Of a stretch of 64,000 nucleotides of DNA, positions 12,224 through 25,825 are shown in pieces. Position 1 is the stretch's first letter; each line of letters opens with the position of its first letter. The notes beneath the pieces are model-generated. The model ran no database searches, was not told the DNA's origin, and was given only the letters and a program-made list of their open reading frames with translations. Position numbers and translations under genes: made by a program. This stretch comes from Salinivenus lutea (lineage in GTDB: Bacteria > Bacteroidota > Rhodothermia > Rhodothermales > Salinibacteraceae). Where the stretch lies: contig NCRC01000017.1 in NCBI GenBank assembly GCA_002894685.1, forward strand, positions 1-64,000, in the 5' to 3' direction.

Positions 12224-13372
12224 TTACGACTGCGCGAAGGCGCCCACGGCGGGCCGGCACGCAATCACGTCCAGCTCGGCGTCGAACGCGTCGGCGTACG
12301 CGGCCGCCACGGCGTCGGCCTCGTCCGCCCCGAACCCTTCGCCCGTCCACGCCATGGCCGCGCCCCCAAACCCGGCCCCCGTGAGGCGTCCGCCCAGCAC
12401 CCCGTCCGTGTCGCGGAGCCGGTCCACAACGAAGTCGAGCTCGTCGGTGCTATTTTCGTAGTCGGTGCGCGAGCTGTCGTGGGAGGCGAAGAGCAGATCG
12501 CCCACCGACTCGTACGCCTCGTCGCGCAGGAGCCGCACGGCCCGCTGCACCCGGCGGTGCTCCGTGCTCACGTGGCGGGCCCGGCGGTAGAGCACCTCCG
12601 GGAGCTCCGCCTGCACCTCCGACAGTTGATCGGGCGACACGTCCACGAGGTGGTCGACGCCTCCCAGGAGGTCGTCGAGTCGGTCGCGGGCCGCACGCGC
12701 CTCGTCGTGCCGCTCCTGATAATGCGCATCCGCCAGGGCGTGGGCCTCGTGGGTCCGAAAAATCCAGAGCCCGGTCCGGGGCGGGAATGGCACCGACGTG
12801 ATCTCGTCGGTGCGCGCATCCACCCGCACGAGTCGATCGTCGGCCCCAAACGCCACGACCGCCTGATCGAGAATGCCACACGGCACGCCCACGAACTCGT
12901 TCTCGGCCCGCCGGCACAGCTGGGCCAGCTGCTTCCGGTCCAGGTCGCCCCCCACTGCTTCCACGACGGCGACGGCCGTGGCCAGCTCCAGCGCGGCACT
13001 GCTGCTCAGCCCGGCCCCCACGGGCAACGTGCTCTCAACCCGCAGCTCCATTCCGCGATCCAGGGCCACGCCCGCCGCCCGTAGCTCGACGATCACGCCC
13101 AGGACGTAGTTGGCCCAGGCCCGGGCGCCGGACTGCGCCTCGATCGCGTGCAGCGGGAGGCGAACCGCCGCCTCGGCGTCGGCGCTGCGCAGGACGAGTT
13201 GGTCGTCTTCCCGAAAGCGCACCCCGACCTCCACCCGCCGATCAATCGCCGCGCCCAGCACCCAGCCGCCATTGTAGTCCGTGTGGTTCCCGATGAACTC
13301 GATCCGACCGGGGGCCGAGCCCCACGCATCTACGTCGTCGAAGGGGCAGGCGAGAGAAGACGGGGCGTTCAT
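12224..13372 (-). CDS. galK: Galactokinase
   Basis: Phosphorylates galactose at C1 (Leloir pathway). The GHMP-kinase features are clear in the 382-residue protein: the galactokinase signature GRIEFIGNHTDYNGG (about 22-36), the ATP loop LPVGAGLSSSAALELA (about 122-137) and a C-terminal GRLTGAGFGGAAMAW. The usual signature has GEHTDYNxG; here GNHTDYNGG carries Asn in place of the first Glu, as some other galactokinases do. galT and galE are not adjacent. The protein is strongly acidic. Confidence 0.95.
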   Translation of the reverse strand: MNAPSSLACPFDDVDAWGSAPGRIEFIGNHTDYNGGWVLGAAIDRRVEVGVRFREDDQLVLRSADAEAAVRLPLHAIEAQSGARAWANYVLGVIVELRAAGVALDRGMELRVESTLPVGAGLSSSAALELATAVAVVEAVGGDLDRKQLAQLCRRAENEFVGVPCGILDQAVVAFGADDRLVRVDARTDEITSVPFPPRTGLWIFRTHEAHALADAHYQERHDEARAARDRLDDLLGGVDHLVDVSPDQLSEVQAELPEVLYRRARHVSTEHRRVQRAVRLLRDEAYESVGDLLFASHDSSRTDYENSTDELDFVVDRLRDTDGVLGGRLTGAGFGGAAMAWTGEGFGADEADAVAAAYADAFDAELDVIACRPAVGAFAQS

Positions 13373-13555
13373 GAGATCGGGCCGACGAGCTGTCGAGACA
13401 GAATGCGACGTGTGCTGTGCATAACCTCTGGAGTCGAACTGAGGGACGCAACGGTGCCGAATGAGTTTGCGACGGAGATGCCTCCCGTCCGCTCCTCTTC
13501 TGCCCCAAGGCTCTTCTACGGCCTCTTCCGCCGGCCCCGGCGAGAACCTCAGCGC

Positions 13556-14068
13556 TCAGTTGCGCGAGGGCGGGGCGCGGAGACGTCCCTCCACCTGCAC
13601 GCCGGCATCGCCCCCGCCCCGGTGCATTTGCCCGCGCATCTCGAACGAAAACGTGGCCGCCACCGTCTCCCCCTGCACGCTCTCGACGGTGAGCGTGCCA
13701 CGCTCGGCCGTGAACGCGGCGTCGCTCGTCGTCAAAAACGCCATCGTCCCCGCCGCCTCCAACGTGTCGGCCTGGTTGCCAAAGAGGGGGCCGTCCACGA
13801 TCGTGTAGCGGCCCGGGGCGAGCGGGCGGGGATCCAGTTCGAGGGACATCCCCACCCCGTCCGGCGTACCCAGCTCGATTCCCACGAGGTGCCCGTCGCG
13901 CACCCGGTACTGCACAGGGCCCCGCAGGGTGTCGGTCACGCTGCCGCCGATCTCTATCACAAACTCTCCCGACGGCACGTCCACCGACGCGGACTCCGAA
14001 CAGCCGAGGAGGAGCGCCCCGGCCACAGCACACACGAGCCACGCGAGGAGGGGAGAACGGTCAGGCAT
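13556..14068 (-). CDS. Small lipoprotein of unknown function
   Basis: A 170-residue predicted lipoprotein. Its signal peptide ends in ALLLGC, with Cys23 as the lipidation site, followed by about 145 residues of alternating beta-type sequence. Phrases such as GEFVIEIGGSVTDTLRGPV, YRVRDGHLVGIELG and VAATFSFEMRGQM suggest a small beta-sandwich in the periplasm or on the outer membrane. I recognise no family. It stands alone between galK and the NADH dehydrogenase gene. Confidence 0.72.
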   Translation of the reverse strand: MPDRSPLLAWLVCAVAGALLLGCSESASVDVPSGEFVIEIGGSVTDTLRGPVQYRVRDGHLVGIELGTPDGVGMSLELDPRPLAPGRYTIVDGPLFGNQADTLEAAGTMAFLTTSDAAFTAERGTLTVESVQGETVAATFSFEMRGQMHRGGGDAGVQVEGRLRAPPSRN

Positions 14069-14191
14069 AAACAGGAAGCACCGCGGGCGAAACAGCCGAT
14101 TGTGGGAGGCAGCCTAACGCCATCCCCAGGCAATTGCTCCGCCCCCTCTCCAACGCCCCGCGGCGCTACGACGCCTCCGTCGGGCCTCAGC

Positions 14192-15529
14192 TCATGCTTC
14201 TGCCTGCACCGGCGCCCGCTGCTCCCCTCCACTTTGCTCGGCGGGCACCTGGAGGTCGGGCTTCGACACGTCGTCCAGGATGAGGCGGGCACTGCGGCTG
14301 TACGTGAAGTAGTTGTAGGCCCAGTTCACGAGTGCACTGAGCCGGTTGCGGAAGCCCACCAGCTTGGCGATGTGAATAAAGACCCAGAGGAGCCAGGCAA
14401 AGAGGCCCTTGAAGGTGACTCCCCCCGCTAGCTCGGCCACGGCCGCGTTCCGCCCGATGGTGGCCATCTGACCGTAGTCGCGGTACGCAAACGGCTCGGT
14501 AGACGCTCCCCGAAGTTGGCGCTGGACCTGCGCCGCCGCGTGGCGCCCGCTCTGGATGGCCACCTGCGCAAGCTGCGGCTCGTAGCCGTCCTCGCCCTCA
14601 ATCGCCGCCATGTCCCCCACCGCGTACACGTTCGGCGCCTCCGGCACGCTCAGGTCCCGGTGCACGATGACCCGGCCATCGCGGGCCTGCTCCGTTCCCA
14701 GCAGGTCGGCCAGCGGACTGGCCTTCACGCCGGCGGCCCACACGAGCGTCTGGGCCGGAATCGCGTCCCCTCCCTGCAAATGGATCCGATCCGGCTCCAC
14801 GCGCTCCACGGCGGTTCGGGTCCGCACCTCGACGCCCCGCGCCTCCAGCACCCGGCGCGTGTACTGGCGCAGGGAGGGCTGGTACGGCGGCAACAGATCG
14901 TCCTGCATCTCCAACAGGAGACACTGGGCCTCGGCCCGCGTGTCGAACGCCGCAAAGTCGTCGTTGAGCGTGTCGAAAAGCTCGACCAGCGCCCCCGCCA
15001 TCTCCACCCCGGTCGGGCCGCCCCCCACAATAACGAAGGTCAAGGCCCCCTCGCCCGCGGCCTCCCGGTGCTGGTCGTATCGCTCAAACTGCTTGAGCAC
15101 GTGGTTGCGCAGGGTAACCGCGTCCGGCACGTTCTTCAGCGGGAACGCGTGCTCCTCCACGCCCGGAATGCCGAAATCTGTGCTCACGGCGCCCGCCGCC
15201 AGGATCAGCGCGTCGTAGGACAGGGCCCCGCCCTCCTGCAACTGCACTTCCTGCGCGTCGCGGTCGATGCCCACAACCGTGCCGAGGTGAAACCGAACGC
15301 TCTCGTCCCCCTGAAACACGCTCCGCACGTTGTGGGCAATGTCGTCCGGCTCCAGCCCCGCCATCGCCACTTCGTAGAGCAGCGGCTGAAACTTGTGGTA
15401 GTTGTTGCGGTCGACCAGCGTCACTCGAACGGGGGCGTCCCGCAGGGACTTCGCGGCCTCCAGCCCCGCAAATCCGGCCCCAACGATGACGACGTGTGGA
15501 CGATCGGAAGCAGTATCGGAAATAGACAT
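14192..15529 (-). CDS. ndh: Type II NADH:quinone dehydrogenase (FAD-dependent)
   Basis: A 445-residue peripheral membrane flavoenzyme that passes electrons from NADH to menaquinone without pumping protons. The FAD-binding site is VVIVGAGFAGLEAAKSL (about 15-31), followed by NNYHKFQPLLYEVAMAG, and the NADH-binding site is TFVIVGGGPTGVEMAGAL (about 157-174). The second FAD motif is APNVYAVGDMA. The C-terminal hydrophobic helix FAWLLWVFIHIAKLVGFRN would anchor it in the membrane. I chose ATG 15529 because the preceding in-frame stretch to 15613 is basic and unlike the family. Confidence 0.93.
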   Translation of the reverse strand: MSISDTASDRPHVVIVGAGFAGLEAAKSLRDAPVRVTLVDRNNYHKFQPLLYEVAMAGLEPDDIAHNVRSVFQGDESVRFHLGTVVGIDRDAQEVQLQEGGALSYDALILAAGAVSTDFGIPGVEEHAFPLKNVPDAVTLRNHVLKQFERYDQHREAAGEGALTFVIVGGGPTGVEMAGALVELFDTLNDDFAAFDTRAEAQCLLLEMQDDLLPPYQPSLRQYTRRVLEARGVEVRTRTAVERVEPDRIHLQGGDAIPAQTLVWAAGVKASPLADLLGTEQARDGRVIVHRDLSVPEAPNVYAVGDMAAIEGEDGYEPQLAQVAIQSGRHAAAQVQRQLRGASTEPFAYRDYGQMATIGRNAAVAELAGGVTFKGLFAWLLWVFIHIAKLVGFRNRLSALVNWAYNYFTYSRSARLILDDVSKPDLQVPAEQSGGEQRAPVQAEA

Positions 15530-15652
15530 CGGTGAGGTCGGATGGACGATCAACTCAGCGGAGCGCTTTTTGAATCGCGCTGACAGGATTAGACGCACTC
15601 CGCCGAGAACCATTCCCCCGTTCCGGCTTCGTCCCCAGCTTTGGCGGCTTTA

Positions 15653-17002
15653 TTACACACCTGTTGGATCTCGCTCCTCCACGGGCGGCTGGGGCGAGGC
15701 GGTTCCGTTGGTCGTAAATTCAGGGTACGCCTCCACGTCGTGCTCGTGGCGGTCGAGCCCCTTGTGCTCCGTCGCATCCTCGATGCGCAGGCCGAGCGCC
15801 TGGTCGAGCGCGTAGAAGAGCCCGTAGCTTACCGGGAAGGTCCAGAGGAAGGCGGCGGCCACCCCGAGCGCCTGCACCCCGACCTGGGCCAGGCTGAACC
15901 CGCTCGCGTCGAAGAGGCCGGCGGCCAGAGTGCCCCACGCCCCACACACCCCGTGCACCGCAATGGCGCCTACCGGATCGTCCACGATGCGCTCCAGGCC
16001 CCGCGTGGCGTACACCACGATCGCGCCCGCCACGGCCCCCGTGAGGATGGCGAAGGGGGGCGTGAGGGCGGCACAGCCCGCCGTGATGCCCACGAGCCCG
16101 CCGAGCACCCCGTTCAGCGTCATCGTGGCGTCCGGCGTTCCCCCGTCGATCCACGTGACGGCCATGGCCAGGACCGCCCCCGCGCCGGCCGCCACAAAGG
16201 TGTTCAGCGCAATCTTCGCGATCGCAGTGGAGCCGGCGGTCGTGGACCCGGCGTTGAAGCCAAACCAGCCGAGCCACAGAATGAACACGCCGAGCGCCGC
16301 AAGCGGGAGACTGTGCCCCGGAATCGTTCGCGGCGTGCCGTCCGCTGCGTACTTTTCCTGCCGGGGCCCCACCACCAGGGCGCCCGCCAGGGCCGCCCAT
16401 CCGCCCACGCTGTGCACGACGGTCGACCCGGCAAAATCGATAAACCCGAGCGCCTCCAGCCAGCCGCTGCCGTTGAACAGGCCGCCCCACGCCCAGGCCC
16501 CAAAGACCGGATAGATCACCGCCGTGATCGCCACCGAAAAGAGCAGATAGCCGCTAAACTTGATCCGCTCGGCCACGGCCCCGGACACGATGGTCGCCGC
16601 CGTCGCCGCAAAGACGGCCTGGAAGAAGTAAAACGCGTAGGTCCACGTTTCGGGCTGATCCCCGGTCCCCGTCAGAAAAAACCCGTCGGTGCCGACGACT
16701 CCCCCCCAGGACGTGCCGAACATGAGGCCAAACCCAACGGCAAAGAACGCCAGCCCGCCCGCCGAGGCGTCCATCACGTTCTTCATGATGATGTTCACGG
16801 CGTTCTTCGCCCGCGAAAAGCCGGCCTCCAGCAGCGCAAAGCCCGCCTGCATGAAAAAGACCAGCGCGGCCGCCAGGATCGTCCAGACATAATTCAGGTT
16901 GGTCTGTGTCGTCTCGGCGGACTGTGCCGCCGCCCCGTCGACCCAGACGCCGGAGAGGAGAAGGGAGAAGAGAAGCAGATACCCAGTCGTACGAAGCCGC
17001 AT
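15653..17002 (-). CDS. amt: Ammonium transporter
   Basis: A 449-residue Amt/MEP/Rh channel for NH4+/NH3. A cleavable signal peptide ending in GAAAQ is followed by eleven membrane helices. Marks include FFMQAGFALLEAGFSRAKNAV, FAATAATIVSGAVAER, GFIDFAGSTVVHSVGGWAAL (signature, with the pore His) and a second pore His in AVHGVCGAWGT. The C-terminal tail DRHEHDVEAYPEF is the usual regulatory tail contacted by PII proteins, but no glnB/glnK gene is adjacent. Long AT-rich upstream DNA probably carries a nitrogen-responsive promoter. Confidence 0.96.
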   Translation of the reverse strand: MRLRTTGYLLLFSLLLSGVWVDGAAAQSAETTQTNLNYVWTILAAALVFFMQAGFALLEAGFSRAKNAVNIIMKNVMDASAGGLAFFAVGFGLMFGTSWGGVVGTDGFFLTGTGDQPETWTYAFYFFQAVFAATAATIVSGAVAERIKFSGYLLFSVAITAVIYPVFGAWAWGGLFNGSGWLEALGFIDFAGSTVVHSVGGWAALAGALVVGPRQEKYAADGTPRTIPGHSLPLAALGVFILWLGWFGFNAGSTTAGSTAIAKIALNTFVAAGAGAVLAMAVTWIDGGTPDATMTLNGVLGGLVGITAGCAALTPPFAILTGAVAGAIVVYATRGLERIVDDPVGAIAVHGVCGAWGTLAAGLFDASGFSLAQVGVQALGVAAAFLWTFPVSYGLFYALDQALGLRIEDATEHKGLDRHEHDVEAYPEFTTNGTASPQPPVEERDPTGV

Positions 17003-17306: not shown

Positions 17307-19052
17307 TCAGACCAGTCGGCGGCTGCGGAGGCAGCGCTGAAGCCACTGCTTTTTGCGCTTCAGGAGTTTGAGGCTCATGTCGGACTGCGCTTTGCGAAAT
17401 CGCTCCTTCGCCTTCGCGTGGACGTCCCGGATGTGAACGTCCATGCCCCGGTTTTCGAGGGTGTGGGCCACCTGCGTGGCCAGCTCCGCGCACTCTTTCC
17501 GGAGCTGTTCCTCCTGGGCCGATAGGTCGAGCGTGTCGGGATCCGGTTCCTCGAACGGCTGGCGCTGCACCTGCAGGTTGGCGTCCCGGCTGTTGCTCTC
17601 CAGCTCCAGCCGATGCGTTTCGATGTCACCCTCGTTCACCCCCGTCAGCGCCCACTCCGAGGCCTCGTCGTTCTGCTCGGCCTTCTCAGGCGCGGTCCCT
17701 TCTTCCGTCCGGCGCCGCAGGCCCTCCTGCACCTCGCGCGTCATCCAGTCGAGGGTCTGGGAGAGGCCCAGGTCGCCCGAGGTAAACACGTCGCACACGT
17801 TGGCCGCCTCGTCCCAGCCGTCGTAGTACCGCATGCCGCGGAAGATCTGTTGCAGCGTCTTGGAGCGGGCGCTCACGAGATCCAGCTTGGCGATGACGCT
17901 GATGGTTTTGATGTCGGTGCCCTCGCCAATCATGTCGACCTGCACCATGACGTCCACGTCGCCCTGGCGGTAGGCCTCCAGCCGTTCTTCCCGCTCGTCG
18001 CGCGGCACGTCCTGCCCGATGCGCGTGGTGGTGAACCAGCCGTAGCGCCGCTCCATGAAGTCGAGCACGTCGGCCGCGTGGCGGTTGCTCATGCAGGTGA
18101 CGAGCATCTGGTGATTGCGCTCGTCGCCGGGCCCGAAGTGGCGGGCCCGCTTTTCCTGGAGGCGCCCCACGGCCGGGCCCAGCAGGGTGTCGAGGTATAC
18201 GTCGTGGAAGCGGAGGCTGCGGCGGGCGAAGTAGCGGTCGAGGTGTGCGGTGTCGCGGCCCACCTCGTTTTTCAGTTCAGCGAGGCTCACCTCCACCTCC
18301 TCTCCGGTGTCCTCCTCCACCATCGTAATGGTGTAGTCGACCACGTGCGCCTCGATGCGCTTCAGGATCTGGCCCTCGGCGTGCGCGTCGCGCAGGCTCA
18401 CCTCGTGGAGGGCGCGGTAGTGGAGCTGCTCCTGGCCGCTGTCGGTCGTTTCCACGTCGTGCGGGACCCCAAAGAGCGGCTGGCCGTCGCTGCGGAGGGG
18501 CGTGCCCGAAAGGCCGATAAGCGAGTCGTACGGCAGCCGCCCCACGGCCTGCGACCAGGTGCCCTCCTCGGGCAGGTGGTGGATCTCGTCGAGCACAAAG
18601 AGCGGCGACCCCTGCTGGCAGTAGCGCTGCAGGTCGCTGTTGCCGGATTGCCCGCAGGCGTACTGGTAGGTGGCAATCACGATGGGGATGTCGGGGTTCT
18701 TGACGAACACGCGATCCGAATCGGCCACGCAGAACGGCATGCGGGGCGCCCCGATCCAGCGGAGCATGCGGGCCATCTCGTCCGCGTCGGCGTACTGCTC
18801 CTGCAGGTTGCTGCGGGGCACGAACACCACCAGTTTGTCGCACACGCCCATGGCGCGGGCCACGGCGAAGGAGGCGAGGGCCGTCAGCGTCTTGCCGTAG
18901 CCGGGCACGAAGACGCCGAGGTGATCGGTGCGGCCCTCCTGGTAGGCCCGGGCGAGCTTGGCGAGGAAGGCGAGCTGCCCCTCCCGAAATGAAAAGTCGT
19001 CGGCGGGGGCGAGGCCGGGAAGGTCGGCGGCGTCGATATTGGGAATAGACAT
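17307..19052 (-). CDS. Superfamily II DEAD/DEAH-like helicase
   Basis: A 581-residue SF2 ATPase. Motif I is VPGYGKT (49-55) and motif II is DEIH (155-158). Motif III is LSGTPLR, and the C-terminal RecA domain carries GEGTDIK and a motif VI-like QIFRGMRYYDGW. The N-terminal EGQLAFLAKL supplies a Q-motif-like contact. The last 150 residues are charged, with coiled-coil propensity (EEQLRKECAELATQVAHTL), and end in a basic Lys/Arg patch that could hold nucleic acid. This architecture resembles the helicase subunits of restriction and defence systems, but no nuclease or methylase is present. It lies 171 bases downstream of the jet operon on the same strand. Its higher G+C makes common origin with that operon doubtful. 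Confidence 0.82.
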   Translation of the reverse strand: MSIPNIDAADLPGLAPADDFSFREGQLAFLAKLARAYQEGRTDHLGVFVPGYGKTLTALASFAVARAMGVCDKLVVFVPRSNLQEQYADADEMARMLRWIGAPRMPFCVADSDRVFVKNPDIPIVIATYQYACGQSGNSDLQRYCQQGSPLFVLDEIHHLPEEGTWSQAVGRLPYDSLIGLSGTPLRSDGQPLFGVPHDVETTDSGQEQLHYRALHEVSLRDAHAEGQILKRIEAHVVDYTITMVEEDTGEEVEVSLAELKNEVGRDTAHLDRYFARRSLRFHDVYLDTLLGPAVGRLQEKRARHFGPGDERNHQMLVTCMSNRHAADVLDFMERRYGWFTTTRIGQDVPRDEREERLEAYRQGDVDVMVQVDMIGEGTDIKTISVIAKLDLVSARSKTLQQIFRGMRYYDGWDEAANVCDVFTSGDLGLSQTLDWMTREVQEGLRRRTEEGTAPEKAEQNDEASEWALTGVNEGDIETHRLELESNSRDANLQVQRQPFEEPDPDTLDLSAQEEQLRKECAELATQVAHTLENRGMDVHIRDVHAKAKERFRKAQSDMSLKLLKRKKQWLQRCLRSRRLV

Positions 19053-19223
19053 AGAGATACTGCGAGGCGACAGACACTGCAGAGGGTAACCGGGGCGACG
19101 GCCCCAGGCACAAACACCGACTCCAACGTAGGGGTTACGAGGTGGAGCCGAAAGCAGCCTGGGTAGACGTTTCGGGAAATTGGTTTGCTTGAATGTGGTG
19201 GTTCATTCTGCGTGTGCCCATTT

Positions 19224-20144
19224 TCAATCGTCCTCTTGTAAAGCCTTGTGCAGGAGGATCTCTTGCTCTAGCCCTTGCCCATACCGATGAAGCAGACGCA
19301 GAAGCCGTTGGATGTCTGGATGTGAGGCCTCAGCCAGCCCGTCGAGACGAGCAGCGCTGTCCGCGTAAAGATCGGATTTTCCATACCGATCAAGAAGCAC
19401 TTCCAGTCCATCCGGCCAAAACAGCCGGGCTCGGGCTCCACACGCGTCGTGCAGGCGCTGAAAGTCACTCAGACCTACAGGATCGTAGTCGGGACAGTGA
19501 ATAATGTCACCGGCTCCAATATCAAGCGTACCGAGCCACTCAACCATCCGGGTGGAAAGGACACCCCCTCCGAGACACGCCAGCCGTGCCGTCGTGCCAA
19601 GGTCCTCAAAGCGCAGGAAGGCCTCCCGATTCTCCACAACGGCCAGGGACTCCTCAACGGCAATCGACGTGTCAGAGCCAAGCACCACGGCAGCGACCCC
19701 TGCTGTTTCGGTGAGTTGTCCCACCCGAAACGGAGACCCTTCATAGGTGATCGTCGTACCGGGTGCGCCACGAAACAAGAGCACTTCGTCCCCGGCCGTC
19801 CCTCGTTTTGCATCCCGAAAGTGTGTCACTGCTTCGGAAGCTGGGAGAGCTCCATCGGCTCCACGGTCCGCAGCCGCACGCGCATCGTCGAGCCCGGAGG
19901 GATACTTTTTTTCGGCAAACTGCCGGACCACCTCCTCGTTTTGGACCGCGAGACGTCGGCCGCCTCCAGAACGCTCTACGGTCAACACGCCCGCCTCGCG
20001 AAGAGATCGAAGCTCGTCTCGCTGCTTAGCACTTACGCTGCTCCAAGGCACACTCCCCTGCTCCAGAAGCCGAGCCAGTGTCTGAATCAGTCCGTCCGCC
20101 ATCCCGAAATTCTTTTCAATCACAGATGCCGTGAGCGGGTTCAC
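19224..20144 (-). CDS. jetD: Wadjet JetD-like TOPRIM nuclease subunit
   Basis: A 306-residue protein occupying the JetD/MksG position. The N-terminal 110 residues look like winged-helix DNA-binding sequence (QRDELRSLREAGVLTVER). The C-terminal half is a TOPRIM-type fold, with the conserved Glu in VVENREAF (Glu171) and the metal DxD in CPDYDPVGL (Asp219, Asp221). In Wadjet systems this subunit cleaves circular DNA after extrusion by the SMC complex. The start is uncertain: GTG 20144 is 7 bases after the jetC stop, while ATG 20102 gives 292 residues. The upstream open frame to 20543 overlaps jetC and is rejected. Base composition is less G+C-rich than the flanks. Confidence 0.78.
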   Translation of the reverse strand: MNPLTASVIEKNFGMADGLIQTLARLLEQGSVPWSSVSAKQRDELRSLREAGVLTVERSGGGRRLAVQNEEVVRQFAEKKYPSGLDDARAAADRGADGALPASEAVTHFRDAKRGTAGDEVLLFRGAPGTTITYEGSPFRVGQLTETAGVAAVVLGSDTSIAVEESLAVVENREAFLRFEDLGTTARLACLGGGVLSTRMVEWLGTLDIGAGDIIHCPDYDPVGLSDFQRLHDACGARARLFWPDGLEVLLDRYGKSDLYADSAARLDGLAEASHPDIQRLLRLLHRYGQGLEQEILLHKALQEDD

Positions 20145-20151
20145 ATCCGCA

Positions 20152-22965
20152 CTATCGGCCACTCGCAACGGACGAGCGAGGTCCCCCACTGGCCGTCTCC
20201 TCCTTCTGTCGAAGCTCAACCCGATGTTCGGGTCCGAGATACACCCGCCCGCCATCCGTCTGCAGGTGGTAGATGTGCCGGACGGCCGTCGACTCAGACG
20301 GACTTGCGAGAACGGGAATGAATCCCATCTCAGTTGACGCACGCACGACTCCTTCGAGATTGCTCTCGTCCAGGCTTGACGCTTCGTCGAGATAGAACGG
20401 AAGCCGGAGGGCGTCGTCCCGCAGTAGATCGTTGATGAGCACCAGGTGCACGAGCACCTTGATCGTGATCGACGTTCCGTTGGATTGAATGTTGTCCAGC
20501 CCGTCGTACCGCTCGGTCCCTCCATCGGCGGTCGTGACCGCAAATCCGACGTTGAAAAGATCCGTGAGATGAATCTGCGGATGCCCCTGGAAAAGCTCTT
20601 TCAGTTGCCCGAGGTCCTCTTCAATCTCCCCCTCGCCCCCGAAGAGCGGCATGGTCTCATGCTTCGCGACTCGCTCCAAGAGATTCGTAATCGACTCAAC
20701 GGGCGCGATCTCCAGACGGAGGCGCTCCAAATCCGAAACGGAGGTTTCTCGAAGGCGTCGATTGATTCGGTCGACAACACTCTGGATGGTGTCGAGACTC
20801 GATAGAAGATCGTTGATCTTTCGCCCCAGTCCGGTCATCAGCTCGCCCCACATCTTTTCGAGGGTGCGGCGACGCTCGTCAAGTCCCTCTTTTTGGTCGC
20901 GAAGCTCACCAAGCGTGTTTGTCCTCGTGTCTTTCTTATACTCGCCGTACGTGCCGCTATGAATACGGTCCAGAGTCCTCTGTAGCCGATTTGAGGCACG
21001 TGATTCCCGCTCTCTCTCGTTCTCATACTGGTCCGCGCAGGACAAAATGTCCTCGCCCGTCTTCTGCGGTGCAGTTGGAGGAAAAACGGGCGACCGGTCC
21101 ACCTGAAGGGTGTCGCGCTTGTGGTGCGTGACTGCCAGGTACCGCCCCCACCTTGCGGGGGGTACGTCGAGCCCGCGCATTCGCTTTTTGATCGTCTCCG
21201 TTCGCGTCCGGAGCTGCTCAAATCGAGACTTGAATTCGCGACACTCTCGCTTCAGATTCTGAATTTCTGTCTCCTTCTCGGCCAGGCGTTCCTTCGTAGC
21301 ATTCAACACATCCGTTTGATCATCAATCTGGGACCGTACGGACTTGAGCTCCTTCTCCGCCTCCACTGCGTTCTCGTACGCATCCATCTTCGACCGAAGC
21401 TGCTCAAGTCGGCGTTCGATCGTCTCTGCTTCCTGTCGCCTCGAACTCACATCCCTGGCCACCTCCAGGCGGCGGTCGAGCCGCTCGTACTCGTCACGTC
21501 GCTGCTCCAACTCGTTTCGAATGTGGGCCGGATCTGTATAATCGGCGAGGCCGGGATCTGAAAGGGCCGCAAGTGAAAGGTGCCCGCCCGGAAAATACCA
21601 GCGTCCCTCGTCGAAACGATCGCCGTGAGCCCGTAAGCTCCGGAGCAATTCGTCGAGATCATCGAGGACAATCTCCTCCCCATCGACGTTCAATTCCAGA
21701 AGGTGAGGATTGAGAATTCGGAAGAGTCGCGTCAGCCGATCCTCCCCGAGATGCCTTTTCAATAGCGGCCCCATCAGGTCCTGGAGCCCTTCTAGGCGTT
21801 TTTGAAGACGCATTATCGCATTTTCAGCCCGGTTGCGGCGCTTCTGGATCTCTTCGGGAGCATCGGTGTCTACCGACTTGAGATCGGCAAGAATCTGTGC
21901 CCGCTTGTCTTCGAGCTCATCGATTTGAGAGACGACCTCGTCCGGATTAAAATCGGAAAACTGTTCGATCAGATCATCGAGTTCTTCTTCTTTTCCCATC
22001 AGCCGACCAAGGCGTCGGTTCACCTCGTCCCGTTTTTCTTCGAGCGTCTGCTTTTTCTCCTGCACCTCTTGAAGGGCCGCCCTACTTTGCTGAATCTCGC
22101 GTTGCAGCTTCTGCTGTTTTCCTCGGAGAGATACACTGTGTCGACTGCTCATCCGGAGAAGCTGGGCCCACTTCTCGACCGACCGGCGGCGGAGCTCTGA
22201 TTGCCGGTCCGCTTGACGCAGCGCATCCTCGATATCCGCCTCGTGGTGCTTTAAGTCGGTGATCTCGCGCCGGTGTTGCTTCATTTTTTCGAACTCCTCG
22301 GCGTGAGCCTCTTGCAGGTTGATCTCCAGCGTCTCCATCCCCGATGCATAGGTGCTACACAGGGTTTGCTTCAGAGCACTCTGGTCGAGTCGTCGGAGTC
22401 GGATGAGCCCCTTAAAGAGATCGCGGAATTTTGCGTACCCGTTATGGTCCTGCACCGGAATAAGGCCTAGGCGGAGCCCTTTACTGTCACCAATGCCGGT
22501 AAGAGCGGCCCGGAGGGTTCGGGCCTCCAACTCCCGAAAATCCTTCAAACTGAGGCTCTGTTTTACATCTTCCACCTCTCTGGGCATCAGGCCTTCGTCG
22601 GACGAGGTTAAAAAGTCCGTCTTCTCAAACTCGCCCGAGAAGGCAAATCGCTGAATATCGTGTCCGTCCGTTGGCCCTTTTCCGTAGGCGCCCACCACCT
22701 GCAGGCCCTCCGGGGTGAGGCACTCGAAGAGCACGTAGCTCCGGCGATCGGGGAAGTAGTACGACTTTGTTTCCCGCCAGCTGTATCCGGGAAACGACAT
22801 GTGGCTCTCCTTGTCGACGTAGAGAAGTTGGAGAATGTTGACCAGGGTCGTCTTGCCGATGTTGTTGGGCCCGACAAGATGCAGCGGCCTCGTGAGATCC
22901 ACGTCGGCATAGCTAAATTTCGCCGCGTTGATGAGGATGAGTCGCGTCGGTCCGGTGGTGGGCAT
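20152..22965 (-). CDS. jetC: Wadjet JetC-like SMC/MukB-type ATPase
   Basis: A 937-residue SMC-like ATPase. The N-terminal head has Walker A GPNNIGKTT (32-40). A very long coiled coil rich in Glu/Arg/Lys/Leu spans about 215-700, with a break near 440-500 that may be the hinge. The C-terminal head has a signature-like QSNGTS (827-832) and Walker B LPFYLDEASSLD (Asp860, Glu861). It should form the DNA-loop-extruding ring with JetA and JetB. The signature departs from LSGGQ. It is somewhat shorter than the type I JetC proteins I know of (about 1,100 residues). A GTG at 23040 overlapping the jetB stop would add 25 basic residues; ATG 22965 is preferred because SMC homology begins immediately after it. 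Confidence 0.85.
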   Translation of the reverse strand: MPTTGPTRLILINAAKFSYADVDLTRPLHLVGPNNIGKTTLVNILQLLYVDKESHMSFPGYSWRETKSYYFPDRRSYVLFECLTPEGLQVVGAYGKGPTDGHDIQRFAFSGEFEKTDFLTSSDEGLMPREVEDVKQSLSLKDFRELEARTLRAALTGIGDSKGLRLGLIPVQDHNGYAKFRDLFKGLIRLRRLDQSALKQTLCSTYASGMETLEINLQEAHAEEFEKMKQHRREITDLKHHEADIEDALRQADRQSELRRRSVEKWAQLLRMSSRHSVSLRGKQQKLQREIQQSRAALQEVQEKKQTLEEKRDEVNRRLGRLMGKEEELDDLIEQFSDFNPDEVVSQIDELEDKRAQILADLKSVDTDAPEEIQKRRNRAENAIMRLQKRLEGLQDLMGPLLKRHLGEDRLTRLFRILNPHLLELNVDGEEIVLDDLDELLRSLRAHGDRFDEGRWYFPGGHLSLAALSDPGLADYTDPAHIRNELEQRRDEYERLDRRLEVARDVSSRRQEAETIERRLEQLRSKMDAYENAVEAEKELKSVRSQIDDQTDVLNATKERLAEKETEIQNLKRECREFKSRFEQLRTRTETIKKRMRGLDVPPARWGRYLAVTHHKRDTLQVDRSPVFPPTAPQKTGEDILSCADQYENERERESRASNRLQRTLDRIHSGTYGEYKKDTRTNTLGELRDQKEGLDERRRTLEKMWGELMTGLGRKINDLLSSLDTIQSVVDRINRRLRETSVSDLERLRLEIAPVESITNLLERVAKHETMPLFGGEGEIEEDLGQLKELFQGHPQIHLTDLFNVGFAVTTADGGTERYDGLDNIQSNGTSITIKVLVHLVLINDLLRDDALRLPFYLDEASSLDESNLEGVVRASTEMGFIPVLASPSESTAVRHIYHLQTDGGRVYLGPEHRVELRQKEETASGGPRSSVASGR

Positions 22966-23036
22966 CGGGCTGGATTCACGTAAATGAATGGCGGAGAGAT
23001 TGAAACGCCGGCAGACTCTCCCGGACTGCCGTCTCT

Positions 23037-23627
23037 TCACTCAATTGAGGACGACTCAGCCGGGTCCAGGGAATCGATAGCGGAATCCTGAGACGTTGAA
23101 ACCTCTTCCGCCTCCCCCTCCTCAAGATCTGAGGCCTCGCGGCAGAGGTCCAAAAACCGGTAGGCGGCCCTTCGAAGCATAAAACCAGTGTCGACCCTCT
23201 TCGCGAACCCGAACCGCACCAGGGACCTCACGATGCCGTCCAGGTCGTCGGCATCGTGGACATCAATGGCATTCATGTACTCCTCGTACCGGGCCGTTTT
23301 CAGGTGGGGCAGGTTCTCAATTCGGAACCCCGTGTCGAACAACGAGGGGACAATCGACGAATGGGTTTCGCCAAAGTGCTCAACGAGGATCAGCATGAAC
23401 AGGCCCATCCGTCGTGCTTGCTTACCGGGCTGCACGTTGTCGTTTGCAACCAGGTAAACCACATTCTTCGGATGCTTCTTCAGATCGAGCCCGAGGCTGT
23501 CGAACAAGCGCTGATACTCCTCAAACCGGTCCCAGAGCGTGCGGTAGACCTCGCCGTCCTCCGGGGTGAAGTGATAACCTCGGCGGAGCTTGTTGAAAAT
23601 GGGTTCGAGGTGGGGAAGAGAATCCAT
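23037..23627 (-). CDS. jetB: Wadjet JetB-like (MukE/MksE-type) kleisin-associated subunit
   Basis: A 196-residue acidic protein in the JetB position. The N-terminal part, PIFNKLRRGYHFTPEDGEVY, and the central helical segment read like two winged-helix domains. VVYLVANDNVQPGKQARRMG is a likely strand-turn-helix. The C-terminal 35 residues are a Glu/Ser-rich acidic tail. MukE/MksE-type subunits clamp the kleisin and bind DNA. The TGA stop overlaps a GTG that could start jetC, and jetA ends 63 bases upstream, so the genes are translationally close. Assignment rests on size, order and neighbours more than on strong motifs. Confidence 0.7.
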   Translation of the reverse strand: MDSLPHLEPIFNKLRRGYHFTPEDGEVYRTLWDRFEEYQRLFDSLGLDLKKHPKNVVYLVANDNVQPGKQARRMGLFMLILVEHFGETHSSIVPSLFDTGFRIENLPHLKTARYEEYMNAIDVHDADDLDGIVRSLVRFGFAKRVDTGFMLRRAAYRFLDLCREASDLEEGEAEEVSTSQDSAIDSLDPAESSSIE

Positions 23628-23690
23628 GTCCTCGACGGCCTGGGTGACAGAACGAGCGGCTCAGACTGGTCCGGCGCCAACCATTACAAT

Positions 23691-24920
23691 TTACGGAGAA
23701 GAGAAGCCTTCTTCTACCCTTATTTGAACCGGAACGGCCGACAGTACCGTGTCTCCGAAATCGTATTCCCTTCGCGTGTCTCCGAATGTTGTCGACAACG
23801 TCTCGCTCTGCAGAAGGTAGCGGTAGGCTCGAAGGGTTCGCAGGGGGGCGGCGTCCCGTTCATCAATGAGCCAGGCCATCGCGTCGGGGATCGGACAGGC
23901 CGCGTGCGCATCTGAGATGAGTTCATCCCTGTCGAGCACCGAGGGGACGCGTGACGACGAAGGCTCCTGAATGGGCTCCGGGTCCGGCGGTTCGTATCCC
24001 GCCATGTCGTGCAGATACGCACTGAGGCCCTCCTCCCGAAACACTGTTCGCATTCTGAAGCTCGCGAGCTCCATTTCTTCAATCAACTTCAGCGAATCCG
24101 CCCCCTCGTGGTGAACGCGGTTCAAAAGCGAGGACGCCCCTTCGAGAATGTAACTGCTCGTCTCATGCTGCTCGTACAGATGCATCGTTTCTCGACGGGC
24201 GGCCTCGAAGTTCTCAAGCACGGTTCGCCGAACGCATCGGAGTCGCGCTCTCGTCGATTTGAGATCGCGAACAAGGGAGGGGTCGTCCGAAAAAGCAGTC
24301 TGTGCTTCGCCAAGCATCACCCTGAGTTGGGAAAAACGCTTCTCAAACGGCCCCCGACTCTGAACGATGTTTTGAAGCGGCGTGACGTAGTCGTCGAGCA
24401 GCTCATTAATCATCACAAAGCGCTCCCGAACGGAGTGGGACATCGTTTCGGCCCGGAGCTCGGTTACACGGTTCAGAACCGCCTCCCGGTTCGATCGAGA
24501 AAGCGTGCGAATATTTTCAATTTCGGTATCGATATGTTCGAGCACGCGCTCTACGCCTGGGCCGTTAGACTCCTCGGTGCGGTGATCGAGTCGCTCCATG
24601 AGTTCTTCCAGGCGATCGAGATACGCCTGGATGGCCTTCGGCGTGCTTAGCTTTTGCTTTCGCCGGAACTCTCGAAAAAGCTGACGCACTGGGGGCGTAA
24701 GTTCGAAGGACGCCGTCTCTTCGGGACGGGCCTCGATCAGCCGATGTGTCTGAAACTGTCGGAAAACGTGCCCGGCAGAGGCCGTGTGGGAGGAGTCTTT
24801 GCCCAGTCGGGAGCGGAGTTCAGTCTCCCGCATCCCCTTCCGGGCGTCGAAGAGCGCCTCCAGCGTTTCGAAATGCTGATGCGCCAACCGAAAAAACGTT
24901 TTGATGTCGGGCGTGGACAT
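23691..24920 (-). CDS. jetA: Wadjet JetA-like (MukF/MksF-type) kleisin subunit
   Basis: A 409-residue helical protein in the JetA position. The N-terminus has a winged-helix pattern (ETLEALFDARKGMRETELRS, then GHVFRQFQTHRLIEA). The middle is long amphipathic helices with heptad character (about 100-300, e.g. IQAYLDRLEELMERLDHRTE). The C-terminal part around 355-405 resembles a second winged helix. This is the layout of MukF/MksF kleisins that bridge the SMC heads. It is shorter than the DUF3375 JetA of type I systems as I remember them. It begins 11 bases after the menB stop, so it may be read from the menB promoter. Confidence 0.7.
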   Translation of the reverse strand: MSTPDIKTFFRLAHQHFETLEALFDARKGMRETELRSRLGKDSSHTASAGHVFRQFQTHRLIEARPEETASFELTPPVRQLFREFRRKQKLSTPKAIQAYLDRLEELMERLDHRTEESNGPGVERVLEHIDTEIENIRTLSRSNREAVLNRVTELRAETMSHSVRERFVMINELLDDYVTPLQNIVQSRGPFEKRFSQLRVMLGEAQTAFSDDPSLVRDLKSTRARLRCVRRTVLENFEAARRETMHLYEQHETSSYILEGASSLLNRVHHEGADSLKLIEEMELASFRMRTVFREEGLSAYLHDMAGYEPPDPEPIQEPSSSRVPSVLDRDELISDAHAACPIPDAMAWLIDERDAAPLRTLRAYRYLLQSETLSTTFGDTRREYDFGDTVLSAVPVQIRVEEGFSSP

Positions 24921-24931
24921 AAGACTTCAGT

Positions 24932-25825
24932 CTAATAGTGCCAGGGCACATCGCTCCAGTCCGGCTCCCGCCCCTCCAGAAACGCGTCGCGGCCCTCCTG
25001 CGCCTCGTCGGTCATGTACGCCAGTCGGGTCGCCTCGCCGGCAAAGACCTGCTGCCCCACCATGCCGTCGTCCACCGCGTTGAAGGCGTACTTGAGCATG
25101 CGGATGGCCGTGGGGCTCTTGCCGTTGATCGTCTCGGCCCAGTCGAGGGCCGTCTCCTCGAGCTCGTCGTGCGGGACCGCCTCGTTGGCCATGCCCATCT
25201 CCACGGCCTCCTCCGCGGAGTAGGTCTTGCCGAGGAAGAAGATCTCGCGCGCCTTCTTCTGGCCCACCTGCCGCGCCAGCAGGGCCGAGCCAAAGCCGCC
25301 GTCGAAGCTGGCGACGTCGGGATCGGTCTGCTTGAAGGCGGCGTGCTCACGGCTGGCGAGGGTGAGATCACACACCACGTGCAGGCTGTGTCCCCCGCCG
25401 ACGGCCCAGCCCGGCACCACGGCAATCACCACCTTGGGCATGAACCGGATGAGGCGCTGGACCTCCAGGATGTGCAGGCGTCCCGGACGCGCCTCGTCCG
25501 CCTCGCCTTCCTCGTCCTCGTACTGGTACCCGTCTGCGCCGCGAATGCGCTGGTCGCCGCCCGACGAGAAGGCCCACTTGCCGTGTTTCTCCGAGGGGCC
25601 GTTGCCGGTGAGCAGCACGCAGCCCACATCGGCACTCTGGCGGGCGTGATCGAGGGCCTGGTACAGCTCGTCCACCGTGGGCGGACGAAAGGCATTCAGC
25701 ACCTCGGGGCGGTCGAATGCGATGCGGACCGTGCCGTGGGCCTCGGCGCGGTGGTAGGTCACATCGTCGAACTCGAAGCCCTCAACGGGCGTCCAGGCAT
25801 CGGCGGCAAAAAGATCAGAAACCAC
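24932..25825 (-). CDS. menB: 1,4-dihydroxy-2-naphthoyl-CoA synthase
   Basis: A crotonase-fold enzyme of menaquinone synthesis that closes the ring of o-succinylbenzoyl-CoA. The 297-residue protein has family marks FSSGGDQRIRG, the disordered active-site loop GYQYEDEEGEADEARPG, VVPGWAVGGGHSLHVVCDLT and DPDVASFDGGFGSALLARQVG, plus the C-terminal GREPDWSDVPWHY. It is cytosolic. Other men genes are not in the window. The jet operon follows directly. Confidence 0.96.
   Translation of the reverse strand: MVSDLFAADAWTPVEGFEFDDVTYHRAEAHGTVRIAFDRPEVLNAFRPPTVDELYQALDHARQSADVGCVLLTGNGPSEKHGKWAFSSGGDQRIRGADGYQYEDEEGEADEARPGRLHILEVQRLIRFMPKVVIAVVPGWAVGGGHSLHVVCDLTLASREHAAFKQTDPDVASFDGGFGSALLARQVGQKKAREIFFLGKTYSAEEAVEMGMANEAVPHDELEETALDWAETINGKSPTAIRMLKYAFNAVDDGMVGQQVFAGEATRLAYMTDEAQEGRDAFLEGREPDWSDVPWHY

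What the first reader, a model, noticed from the sequence alone, without database searches (positions are those of the whole stretch)
19224..24920. Four-gene Wadjet/Mks-like SMC defence operon
Gene order (kleisin-like, MukE-like, SMC ATPase, TOPRIM nuclease), sizes 409/196/937/306 and motifs (Walker A GPNNIGKTT and Walker B YLDEAS in the SMC; Glu in VVENREAF and DxD in CPDYDPVGL in the TOPRIM subunit) together match the Wadjet plasmid-restriction system (JetABCD, also MksFEBG/EptABCD). The family role is established knowledge; the assignment to these genes is inference from motifs and order. The JetA and JetB proteins have no motif I could match exactly to the type I domains, so this may be a divergent or non-type-I branch.
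Basis: partly seen in the sequence, partly recalled or inferred. Interest (0 to 1): 0.75.

Follow-up and report, generated by a model that had tools for sequence, protein, structure and literature searches.

The report
Compact four-gene Wadjet/Mks plasmid-defence operon
A salt-loving bacterium carries a four-gene DNA-looping machine with a built-in DNA cutter that most likely destroys invading plasmids; it belongs to a small-bodied branch of the Wadjet/Mks defence group that defence profile libraries do not recognise.

Summary
Confirmed: four co-directional minus-strand genes encode a kleisin, an MksE-type KITE protein, a compact SMC ATPase and a TOPRIM protein. A type I Wadjet control passes DUF3375, DUF4194, DUF3322, JetD_C and PADLOC JetC1/JetD1; the window proteins pass none of these. 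They match the Mks condensin profiles instead (MksE 1.8e-23; SMC profile NF040859 3.4e-61, which neither type I JetC nor MukB matches). The TOPRIM subunit belongs to the unnamed Pfam family DUF7281; profile comparison aligns it with type I JetD (E = 7e-7), catalytic acids in register. The same cassette occurs in Salinivenus relatives and on plasmids of Salinibacter, Pseudomonas, Polaromonas, Halioglobus and Neptuniibacter. In the window it exactly fills a variable site: relatives have a peptidase, nothing, or a divergent copy there. Most likely it extrudes loops on circular DNA and cuts plasmids. It joins the Pseudomonas-type MksBEF core, described as nuclease-free, to a nuclease. Its SMC has short arms and a roughly half-size hinge, an exception to a published trend. 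Function is untested, and a 2025 survey of the Wadjet group may already list it.

The parts
23691..24920 (-). Kleisin subunit (JetA / MksF of the Pseudomonas naming), 409 aa
   Evidence: NCBIfam NF040857 E 4.6e-15; AlphaFold N-terminal winged helix (residues 1-95) best matches E. coli JetA (8q72, 9qxt) and also PA14 JetA, MukF and Wadjet-II JetA at their N-termini, Z 7-8.2, tied with generic winged helices
23037..23627 (-). KITE subunit (JetB / MksE), 196 aa
   Evidence: Pfam PF21980 MksE E 1.8e-23, 84 bits over a cut-off of 27; NF040858 2.5e-20
20152..22965 (-). Compact SMC ATPase (JetC / MksB of the Pseudomonas naming), 937 aa; Walker A at 32-40, signature SNGTS at 828-832, Walker B DE at 860-861; predicted arm about 199-394 and hinge gap about 395-484
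   Evidence: NF040859 E 3.4e-61 over residues 5-894; motif residues invariant in the 9-sequence alignment; arm and hinge estimate by composition; no CxxC, so no Rad50 zinc hook
19224..20102 (-). TOPRIM nuclease subunit (JetD / MksG-like, Pfam DUF7281), 292 aa from ATG 20102 or 306 aa from GTG 20144; catalytic E171, D219, D221, E293, E295 in the 306-aa numbering
   Evidence: hhalign against type I JetD E 7.2e-7 with catalytic residues in register; relatives pass PF23947 (1.8e-11) and score just under the PF09983 JetD_C cut-off; invariant residues in the 11-sequence alignment
19131..24935 (.). Variable genomic site occupied exactly by the operon, between a conserved ResIII helicase gene (17307-19052) and an enoyl-CoA hydratase/MenB-like gene (24932-25825)
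   Evidence: Synteny with G147, G195, G199 (S9 peptidase there), G328 (empty) and G410 (divergent mks operon)
24921..24931 (-). 11-bp gap between the end of the enoyl-CoA hydratase gene and the kleisin start codon, same strand; suggests read-through transcription from the host gene
   Evidence: no sigma-70-like minus-strand promoter found upstream of the kleisin gene (weak negative)

Best explanation
It is a plasmid-restriction SMC complex of the Wadjet/Mks group, of a compact Mks branch. By analogy with Wadjet I: two SMC dimers joined by the kleisin N-terminal winged helix load on DNA, use ATP to extrude a loop in opposite directions and, on a small circle, run out of DNA and stall against each other. 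The strained, bent DNA is then presented to the TOPRIM dimer, which makes a metal-dependent double-strand cut. Linear DNA escapes off its ends and the chromosome is too large to be fully extruded. Shown here: subunit homologies, intact ATPase and TOPRIM active-site residues, the operon behaving as one unit at a variable site, and purifying selection. Inferred: assembly, loop extrusion, cleavage, plasmid targeting.
For: Subunits B, C and A match the Mks condensin profiles at 1.8e-23, 3.4e-61 and 4.6e-15. The TOPRIM domain aligns with type I JetD at E 7.2e-7, with VEN, DxDxxG and LEQE motifs in register; the E. coli JetD E248A mutant appears in the PDB title of 8q72. The same four-gene cassette is found in Salinivenus, Salinibacter, Pseudomonas, Polaromonas, Halioglobus and Neptuniibacter. 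Its distribution is patchy: 5 of 27 family genomes and about 3 of 394 in the phylum. It comes and goes as a unit at one site. Neighbours include a type I restriction-modification operon (G309), GmrSD (pSR76) and a WYL regulator (Neptuniibacter). All compact SMC genes examined had the nuclease alongside.
Against: No functional data exist for any member. The subunits fail the defining profiles of Wadjet I-III, so mechanistic transfer crosses a large sequence gap. The kleisin shares no convincing full-length similarity with type I JetA (hhalign probability 5%). The AlphaFold model of the nuclease is too poor to show its fold. Several copies sit on plasmids, which would need to avoid self-cleavage; most carriers are over 100 kb but pSR76 is 76 kb.
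Confidence: 0.75

Rival explanations
1. It is mainly a chromosome or megaplasmid condensin, like P. aeruginosa MksBEF, and the TOPRIM subunit is an accessory strand-passage or repair enzyme rather than a defence nuclease.
For: The SMC, KITE and kleisin match the Mks condensin profiles rather than Wadjet I-III; MksBEF organises the P. aeruginosa chromosome (PMC7485682); two related operons are on 0.9-Mb megaplasmids.
Against: It is patchy even within a genus, with an empty site in a close relative, so not needed for segregation. It lies beside restriction systems in two relatives. JetD-type TOPRIM proteins lack the catalytic tyrosine of topoisomerases (PMC10586767); the tyrosine was not tested in this family.
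Confidence: 0.13
2. It is an SMC-nuclease defence system whose main target is phage rather than plasmid DNA, for example circularised phage genomes.
For: Related SMC-like systems such as Lamassu act on phage (PMC10586767); it lies in defence neighbourhoods.
Against: The Wadjet-group systems tested so far restrict plasmids (PMC10586767). No viral contig or phage record carries relatives, although that absence is weak evidence.
Confidence: 0.08
3. It is a Rad50/RecN/SbcC-like repair or AAA-plus-TOPRIM (OLD/Gabija-type) operon that only resembles Wadjet.
For: The SMC has weak Pfam matches to AAA_15 and coiled-coil families; TOPRIM and ATPase pairs also occur in Gabija and OLD systems.
Against: KITE and kleisin genes are present. 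The SMC matches a condensin profile over its full length, with the MukB-like D-loop DEAxxLDxxN. It has no zinc-hook CxxC.
Confidence: 0.02

Closest known systems
P. aeruginosa-type MksBEF condensin (NCBIfam NF040857-NF040859)
   Same: SMC, KITE and kleisin match these profiles nearly end to end, with similar lengths (937 vs 926, 196 vs 232, 409 vs 412) and kleisin-KITE-SMC order; the compact SMC model does not match type I or MukB.
   Different: Carries a fourth TOPRIM gene; the P. aeruginosa complex is described as lacking JetD (PMC10586767). Scores are far below the NCBIfam equivalog cut-offs. The PAO1 sequences themselves could not be fetched, and that these NCBIfam models represent the P. 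aeruginosa type is from general knowledge.
Wadjet type I JetABCD / MksFEBG (E. coli GF4-3, P. aeruginosa PA14, C. glutamicum)
   Same: Gene order A-B-C-D, subunit roles, TOPRIM catalytic residues including the C-terminal LEQE motif, and the JetA-like N-terminal winged helix.
   Different: Fails DUF3375, DUF4194, DUF3322, JetD_C and PADLOC JetC1/JetD1. The SMC is 937 rather than about 1130 aa, the nuclease about 292 rather than about 390 aa with an N-terminal module that does not align, and the hinge gap about 90 rather than about 175 aa.
Wadjet types II and III
   Same: Four genes with a TOPRIM nuclease; one relative's TOPRIM domain matches the JetD2 profile at 1e-6.
   Different: SMCs of types II/III are about 1360-1470 aa with long arms (PADLOC model lengths, PMC12647877); here the arms are short and no full-length JetC2/C3 match exists.
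E. coli MukBEF
   Same: Kleisin, KITE and SMC plan; the SMC shares the MukB-like Walker B/D-loop spacing.
   Different: MukB is 1486 aa, with a 167-aa hinge domain and no nuclease.

Membership tests
Wadjet/Mks group (SMC + kleisin + KITE, optional MksG/JetD) | Co-directional genes for SMC over 890 aa with Walker motifs, kleisin over 400 aa and KITE over 150 aa (criteria of PMC7617805) | tested here: met
   937, 409 and 196 aa, consecutive, motifs intact
Wadjet/Mks group (SMC + kleisin + KITE, optional MksG/JetD) | KITE subunit of the MksE family | tested here: met
   PF21980 1.8e-23 over cut-off
Wadjet/Mks group (SMC + kleisin + KITE, optional MksG/JetD) | Flanking TOPRIM nuclease homologous to JetD/MksG | tested here: met
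   hhalign E 7.2e-7 with catalytic residues in register; DUF7281 and near-threshold JetD_C in relatives
Wadjet type I | DUF3375 kleisin | tested here: not met
   No match for the window kleisin; control L047 1.9e-103
Wadjet type I | DUF4194 KITE | tested here: not met
   E 0.073, below cut-off; control 1.5e-42
Wadjet type I | JetD with DUF3322 plus JetD_C (DUF2220) | tested here: not met
   Neither for the window protein; one relative reaches 21.6 bits against a JetD_C cut-off of 22; control passes both
Wadjet types I-III | Full-length JetC1, JetC2 or JetC3 match (PADLOC) | tested here: not met
   Only coiled-coil stretches match; control JetC1 E 0
P. aeruginosa-type MksBEF | Profile matches NF040857-NF040859 | tested here: inconclusive
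   Near full-length and highly significant, but 207 (SMC), 73 (KITE) and 55 (kleisin) bits against equivalog cut-offs of 1900, 400 and 750: same broad branch, not an equivalog
Wadjet/Mks group (SMC + kleisin + KITE, optional MksG/JetD) | ATP-dependent cleavage of circular plasmids | not testable with these tools
   needs a transformation or biochemical assay

The most novel reading that the evidence does not exclude
The compact MksBEF + DUF7281 operons form a separate Wadjet subtype. It is the nuclease-bearing sister of the nuclease-free Pseudomonas MksBEF condensins, and it works with both short arms and a small, probably channel-less hinge. It would then have neither of the two proposed ways to pass obstacles, so it should measure plasmid size or protein occupancy differently from Wadjet I-III.
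Probability: 0.35. Interest if true: 0.62.

Novelty: new variant of a known kind. Interest (0 to 1): 0.45.

Why it matters
Reviews propose that MukBEF and MksBEF condensins descended from plasmid-defence complexes (PMC10586767). A compact Mks-type core that still carries a nuclease is the kind of intermediate that idea predicts. It suggests a function for an unnamed Pfam domain (DUF7281) and shows a gap in defence-system profile libraries. Its short arms and small hinge make a published idea about obstacle bypass (hinge channel or long arms, PMC12647877) directly testable.

Tried and rejected
The nuclease N-terminus matches only generic winged-helix proteins; the TOPRIM half was not tested by fold. 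PDB sequence searches (P0001, P0002 and the three profiles) found only chance coiled-coil or weak matches. Viral contigs and phage records hold no relatives. PADLOC JetC2/JetC3 searches of the phylum returned only coiled-coil noise, so no type II/III references for a tree were obtained. PF23947 alone found nothing in the phylum and also missed this operon, so it is a poor detector. hhalign of A1 with A6 and A9 through the tool failed and was rerun in Python. Plasmid carrier size as evidence of self-avoidance was set aside: longer plasmids carry more genes, so the excess of large carriers is expected anyway (not formally tested). RecN/Rad50-type and OLD/Gabija-type readings were rejected. PAO1 MksBEF sequences, the Petrushenko 2011 paper and the supplement of PMC7617805 could not be reached.

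Full report
Observation. Four co-directional ORFs on the minus strand at 24920-19224 encode proteins of 409, 196, 937 and 306 aa in the order given. The last most likely begins at ATG 20102 (292 aa), because relatives start at the conserved MADGL. The SMC most likely starts at ATG 22965: a longer GTG-started frame exists, but its first 25 residues are not conserved (compare the window and L003 ORFs). The quoted motifs are present, and their key residues are invariant or nearly so in distant relatives.

Family tests with a control. The KITE protein is MksE by Pfam (1.8e-23, over cut-off). The SMC, KITE and kleisin match the NCBIfam Mks condensin models at 3.4e-61, 2.5e-20 and 4.6e-15, nearly end to end but well under the equivalog cut-offs. 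These NCBI names swap B and F relative to Pseudomonas usage. Type I JetC and MukB do not match NF040859. A type I Wadjet from the same phylum (L047) passes DUF3375, DUF4194, DUF3322, JetD_C and PADLOC JetC1/JetD1; the window proteins pass none of them. So the operon belongs to the Wadjet/Mks group but not to types I-III as modelled.

The nuclease. The window protein scores only E 0.005 against Pfam DUF7281, but relatives pass (Halioglobus 1.8e-11, Leaf58 4.2e-9) and two lie just under the JetD_C cut-off. Profile-profile comparison with type I JetD gives E 7.2e-7 over 121 columns, aligning E171 with the Glu of the type I EN motif, D219/D221 with the type I DxD, and LEQE with LEQE. Confident homology is confined to the TOPRIM half. 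The N-terminal 90 residues form a predicted winged helix and the type I DUF3322/CAP arm is not detected.

The kleisin. Its predicted N-terminal winged helix has E. coli JetA as its top PDB matches (8q72, 9qxr, 9qxt; Z 8.0-8.2), with PA14 JetA, MukF and Neobacillus Wadjet-II JetA further down, at the same N-terminal position; generic winged helices score nearly as high. This is supportive, not decisive.

Relatives. The same four genes occur in Salinivenus iranica, a Salinivenus MAG, two further family genomes (G410, G309), and on plasmids of Salinibacter ruber (76 kb), Neptuniibacter (172 kb), Polaromonas (190 kb), Halioglobus (156 kb), P. amygdali (972 kb) and Pseudomonas Leaf58 (904 kb). G186 has the order C-D-A-B. 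In an SMC-head tree ten compact members form a clade with 100% support, separate from type I; the tree is unrooted and lacks PAO1 MksB. Among the operons examined, the compact SMC was never seen without the nuclease. Parabacteroides carries a distant three-gene relative with no nuclease.

Genomic setting. The operon exactly fills a variable site between a conserved helicase gene and an enoyl-CoA hydratase gene. Three genus mates have an S9 peptidase there (family shown for G199; the ORFs in G147 and G195 are of similar size and place), G328 has nothing (about 360 bp), and G410 has its own mks operon, with 50-70% protein identity inside and 89-93% in the flanking genes. Only 11 bp separate the hydratase gene from the kleisin start on the same strand, so read-through transcription is likely (inference). 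Against S. iranica, flanking DNA is about 97% identical, but the SMC body falls to 76-90%, with dS about 0.5 against about 0.1 in the neighbouring genes; dN/dS stays at 0.12-0.26. That pattern points to recombination replacing part of the SMC gene rather than relaxed constraint. Neighbours in relatives include a type I restriction-modification operon and GmrSD.

Mechanism. By established Wadjet I knowledge (PMC10586767, PMC10123090, PMC13040014), the complex should extrude loops, complete extrusion on small circles and trigger the TOPRIM dimer to cut bent DNA. Subunit identities and active sites are shown here; everything dynamic is inferred.

Shape. A composition-based estimate puts the N-terminal arm at about 195 residues with a hinge gap near 90 (52-120 in relatives), against about 235 and 175 in type I and about 418 and 180 in MukB, whose known hinge domain is 167 aa. 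PMC12647877 reports that channel-less hinges tend to go with long arms. If this small hinge is channel-less, which is not shown, the family breaks that trend.

Novelty. The survey in PMC7617805 used criteria this operon meets and may list it. The distinct features are a nuclease on a Pseudomonas-type compact Mks core, the DUF7281 assignment, and absence from PADLOC profiles. I rate it a new variant of a known kind.

Noticed in passing
L043:2735-8826 and L044:5501-11623: A further uncatalogued Wadjet-like four-gene operon: kleisin 437-456 aa, KITE 215-224, SMC 1056-1080, TOPRIM-like 305-317 aa with CEN, CDWDYxGL and EES motifs. PADLOC gave no match for any of the four L043 proteins.
   Followed up: partly
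L040:5169-11778 (Photobacterium damselae p1_508): Shuffled operon on a 599-kb plasmid: JetD-like gene first, then SMC (958 aa), a DUF5406 gene, two unknown genes, then a KITE-like gene.
   Followed up: no
L036:9700-10869, L037:9703-10902, L035:9674-10144: Fifth genes overlapping the end of the nuclease gene on Pseudomonas megaplasmids (about 390 aa) and in Neptuniibacter (156 aa); the Pfam scan gave nothing credible for the two tested. Possible extra subunits.
   Followed up: partly
window 20401-22800: The middle of the SMC gene is 76-90% identical to S. iranica while the flanks are about 97%, suggesting recombination within the SMC gene.
   Followed up: partly
L083:2182-6360 and 12325-16982 (G309): The mks operon lies next to type I restriction genes (HsdM, HsdS) and, on the other side, DUF4145 and MotA/ExbB-like genes: a likely defence island.
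   Followed up: partly
L042:2248-7678 (Parabacteroides distasonis): Three-gene Mks-like operon (about 395, 189 and 1209 aa) with no nuclease, followed by a convergent NAD synthase gene: a possible nuclease-free condensin.
   Followed up: no
NCBIfam NF040857 and NF040859 (hits on window 20152-24920): Model names appear swapped relative to Pseudomonas usage: the 926-aa SMC model is called MksF and the 412-aa kleisin model MksB.
   Followed up: no
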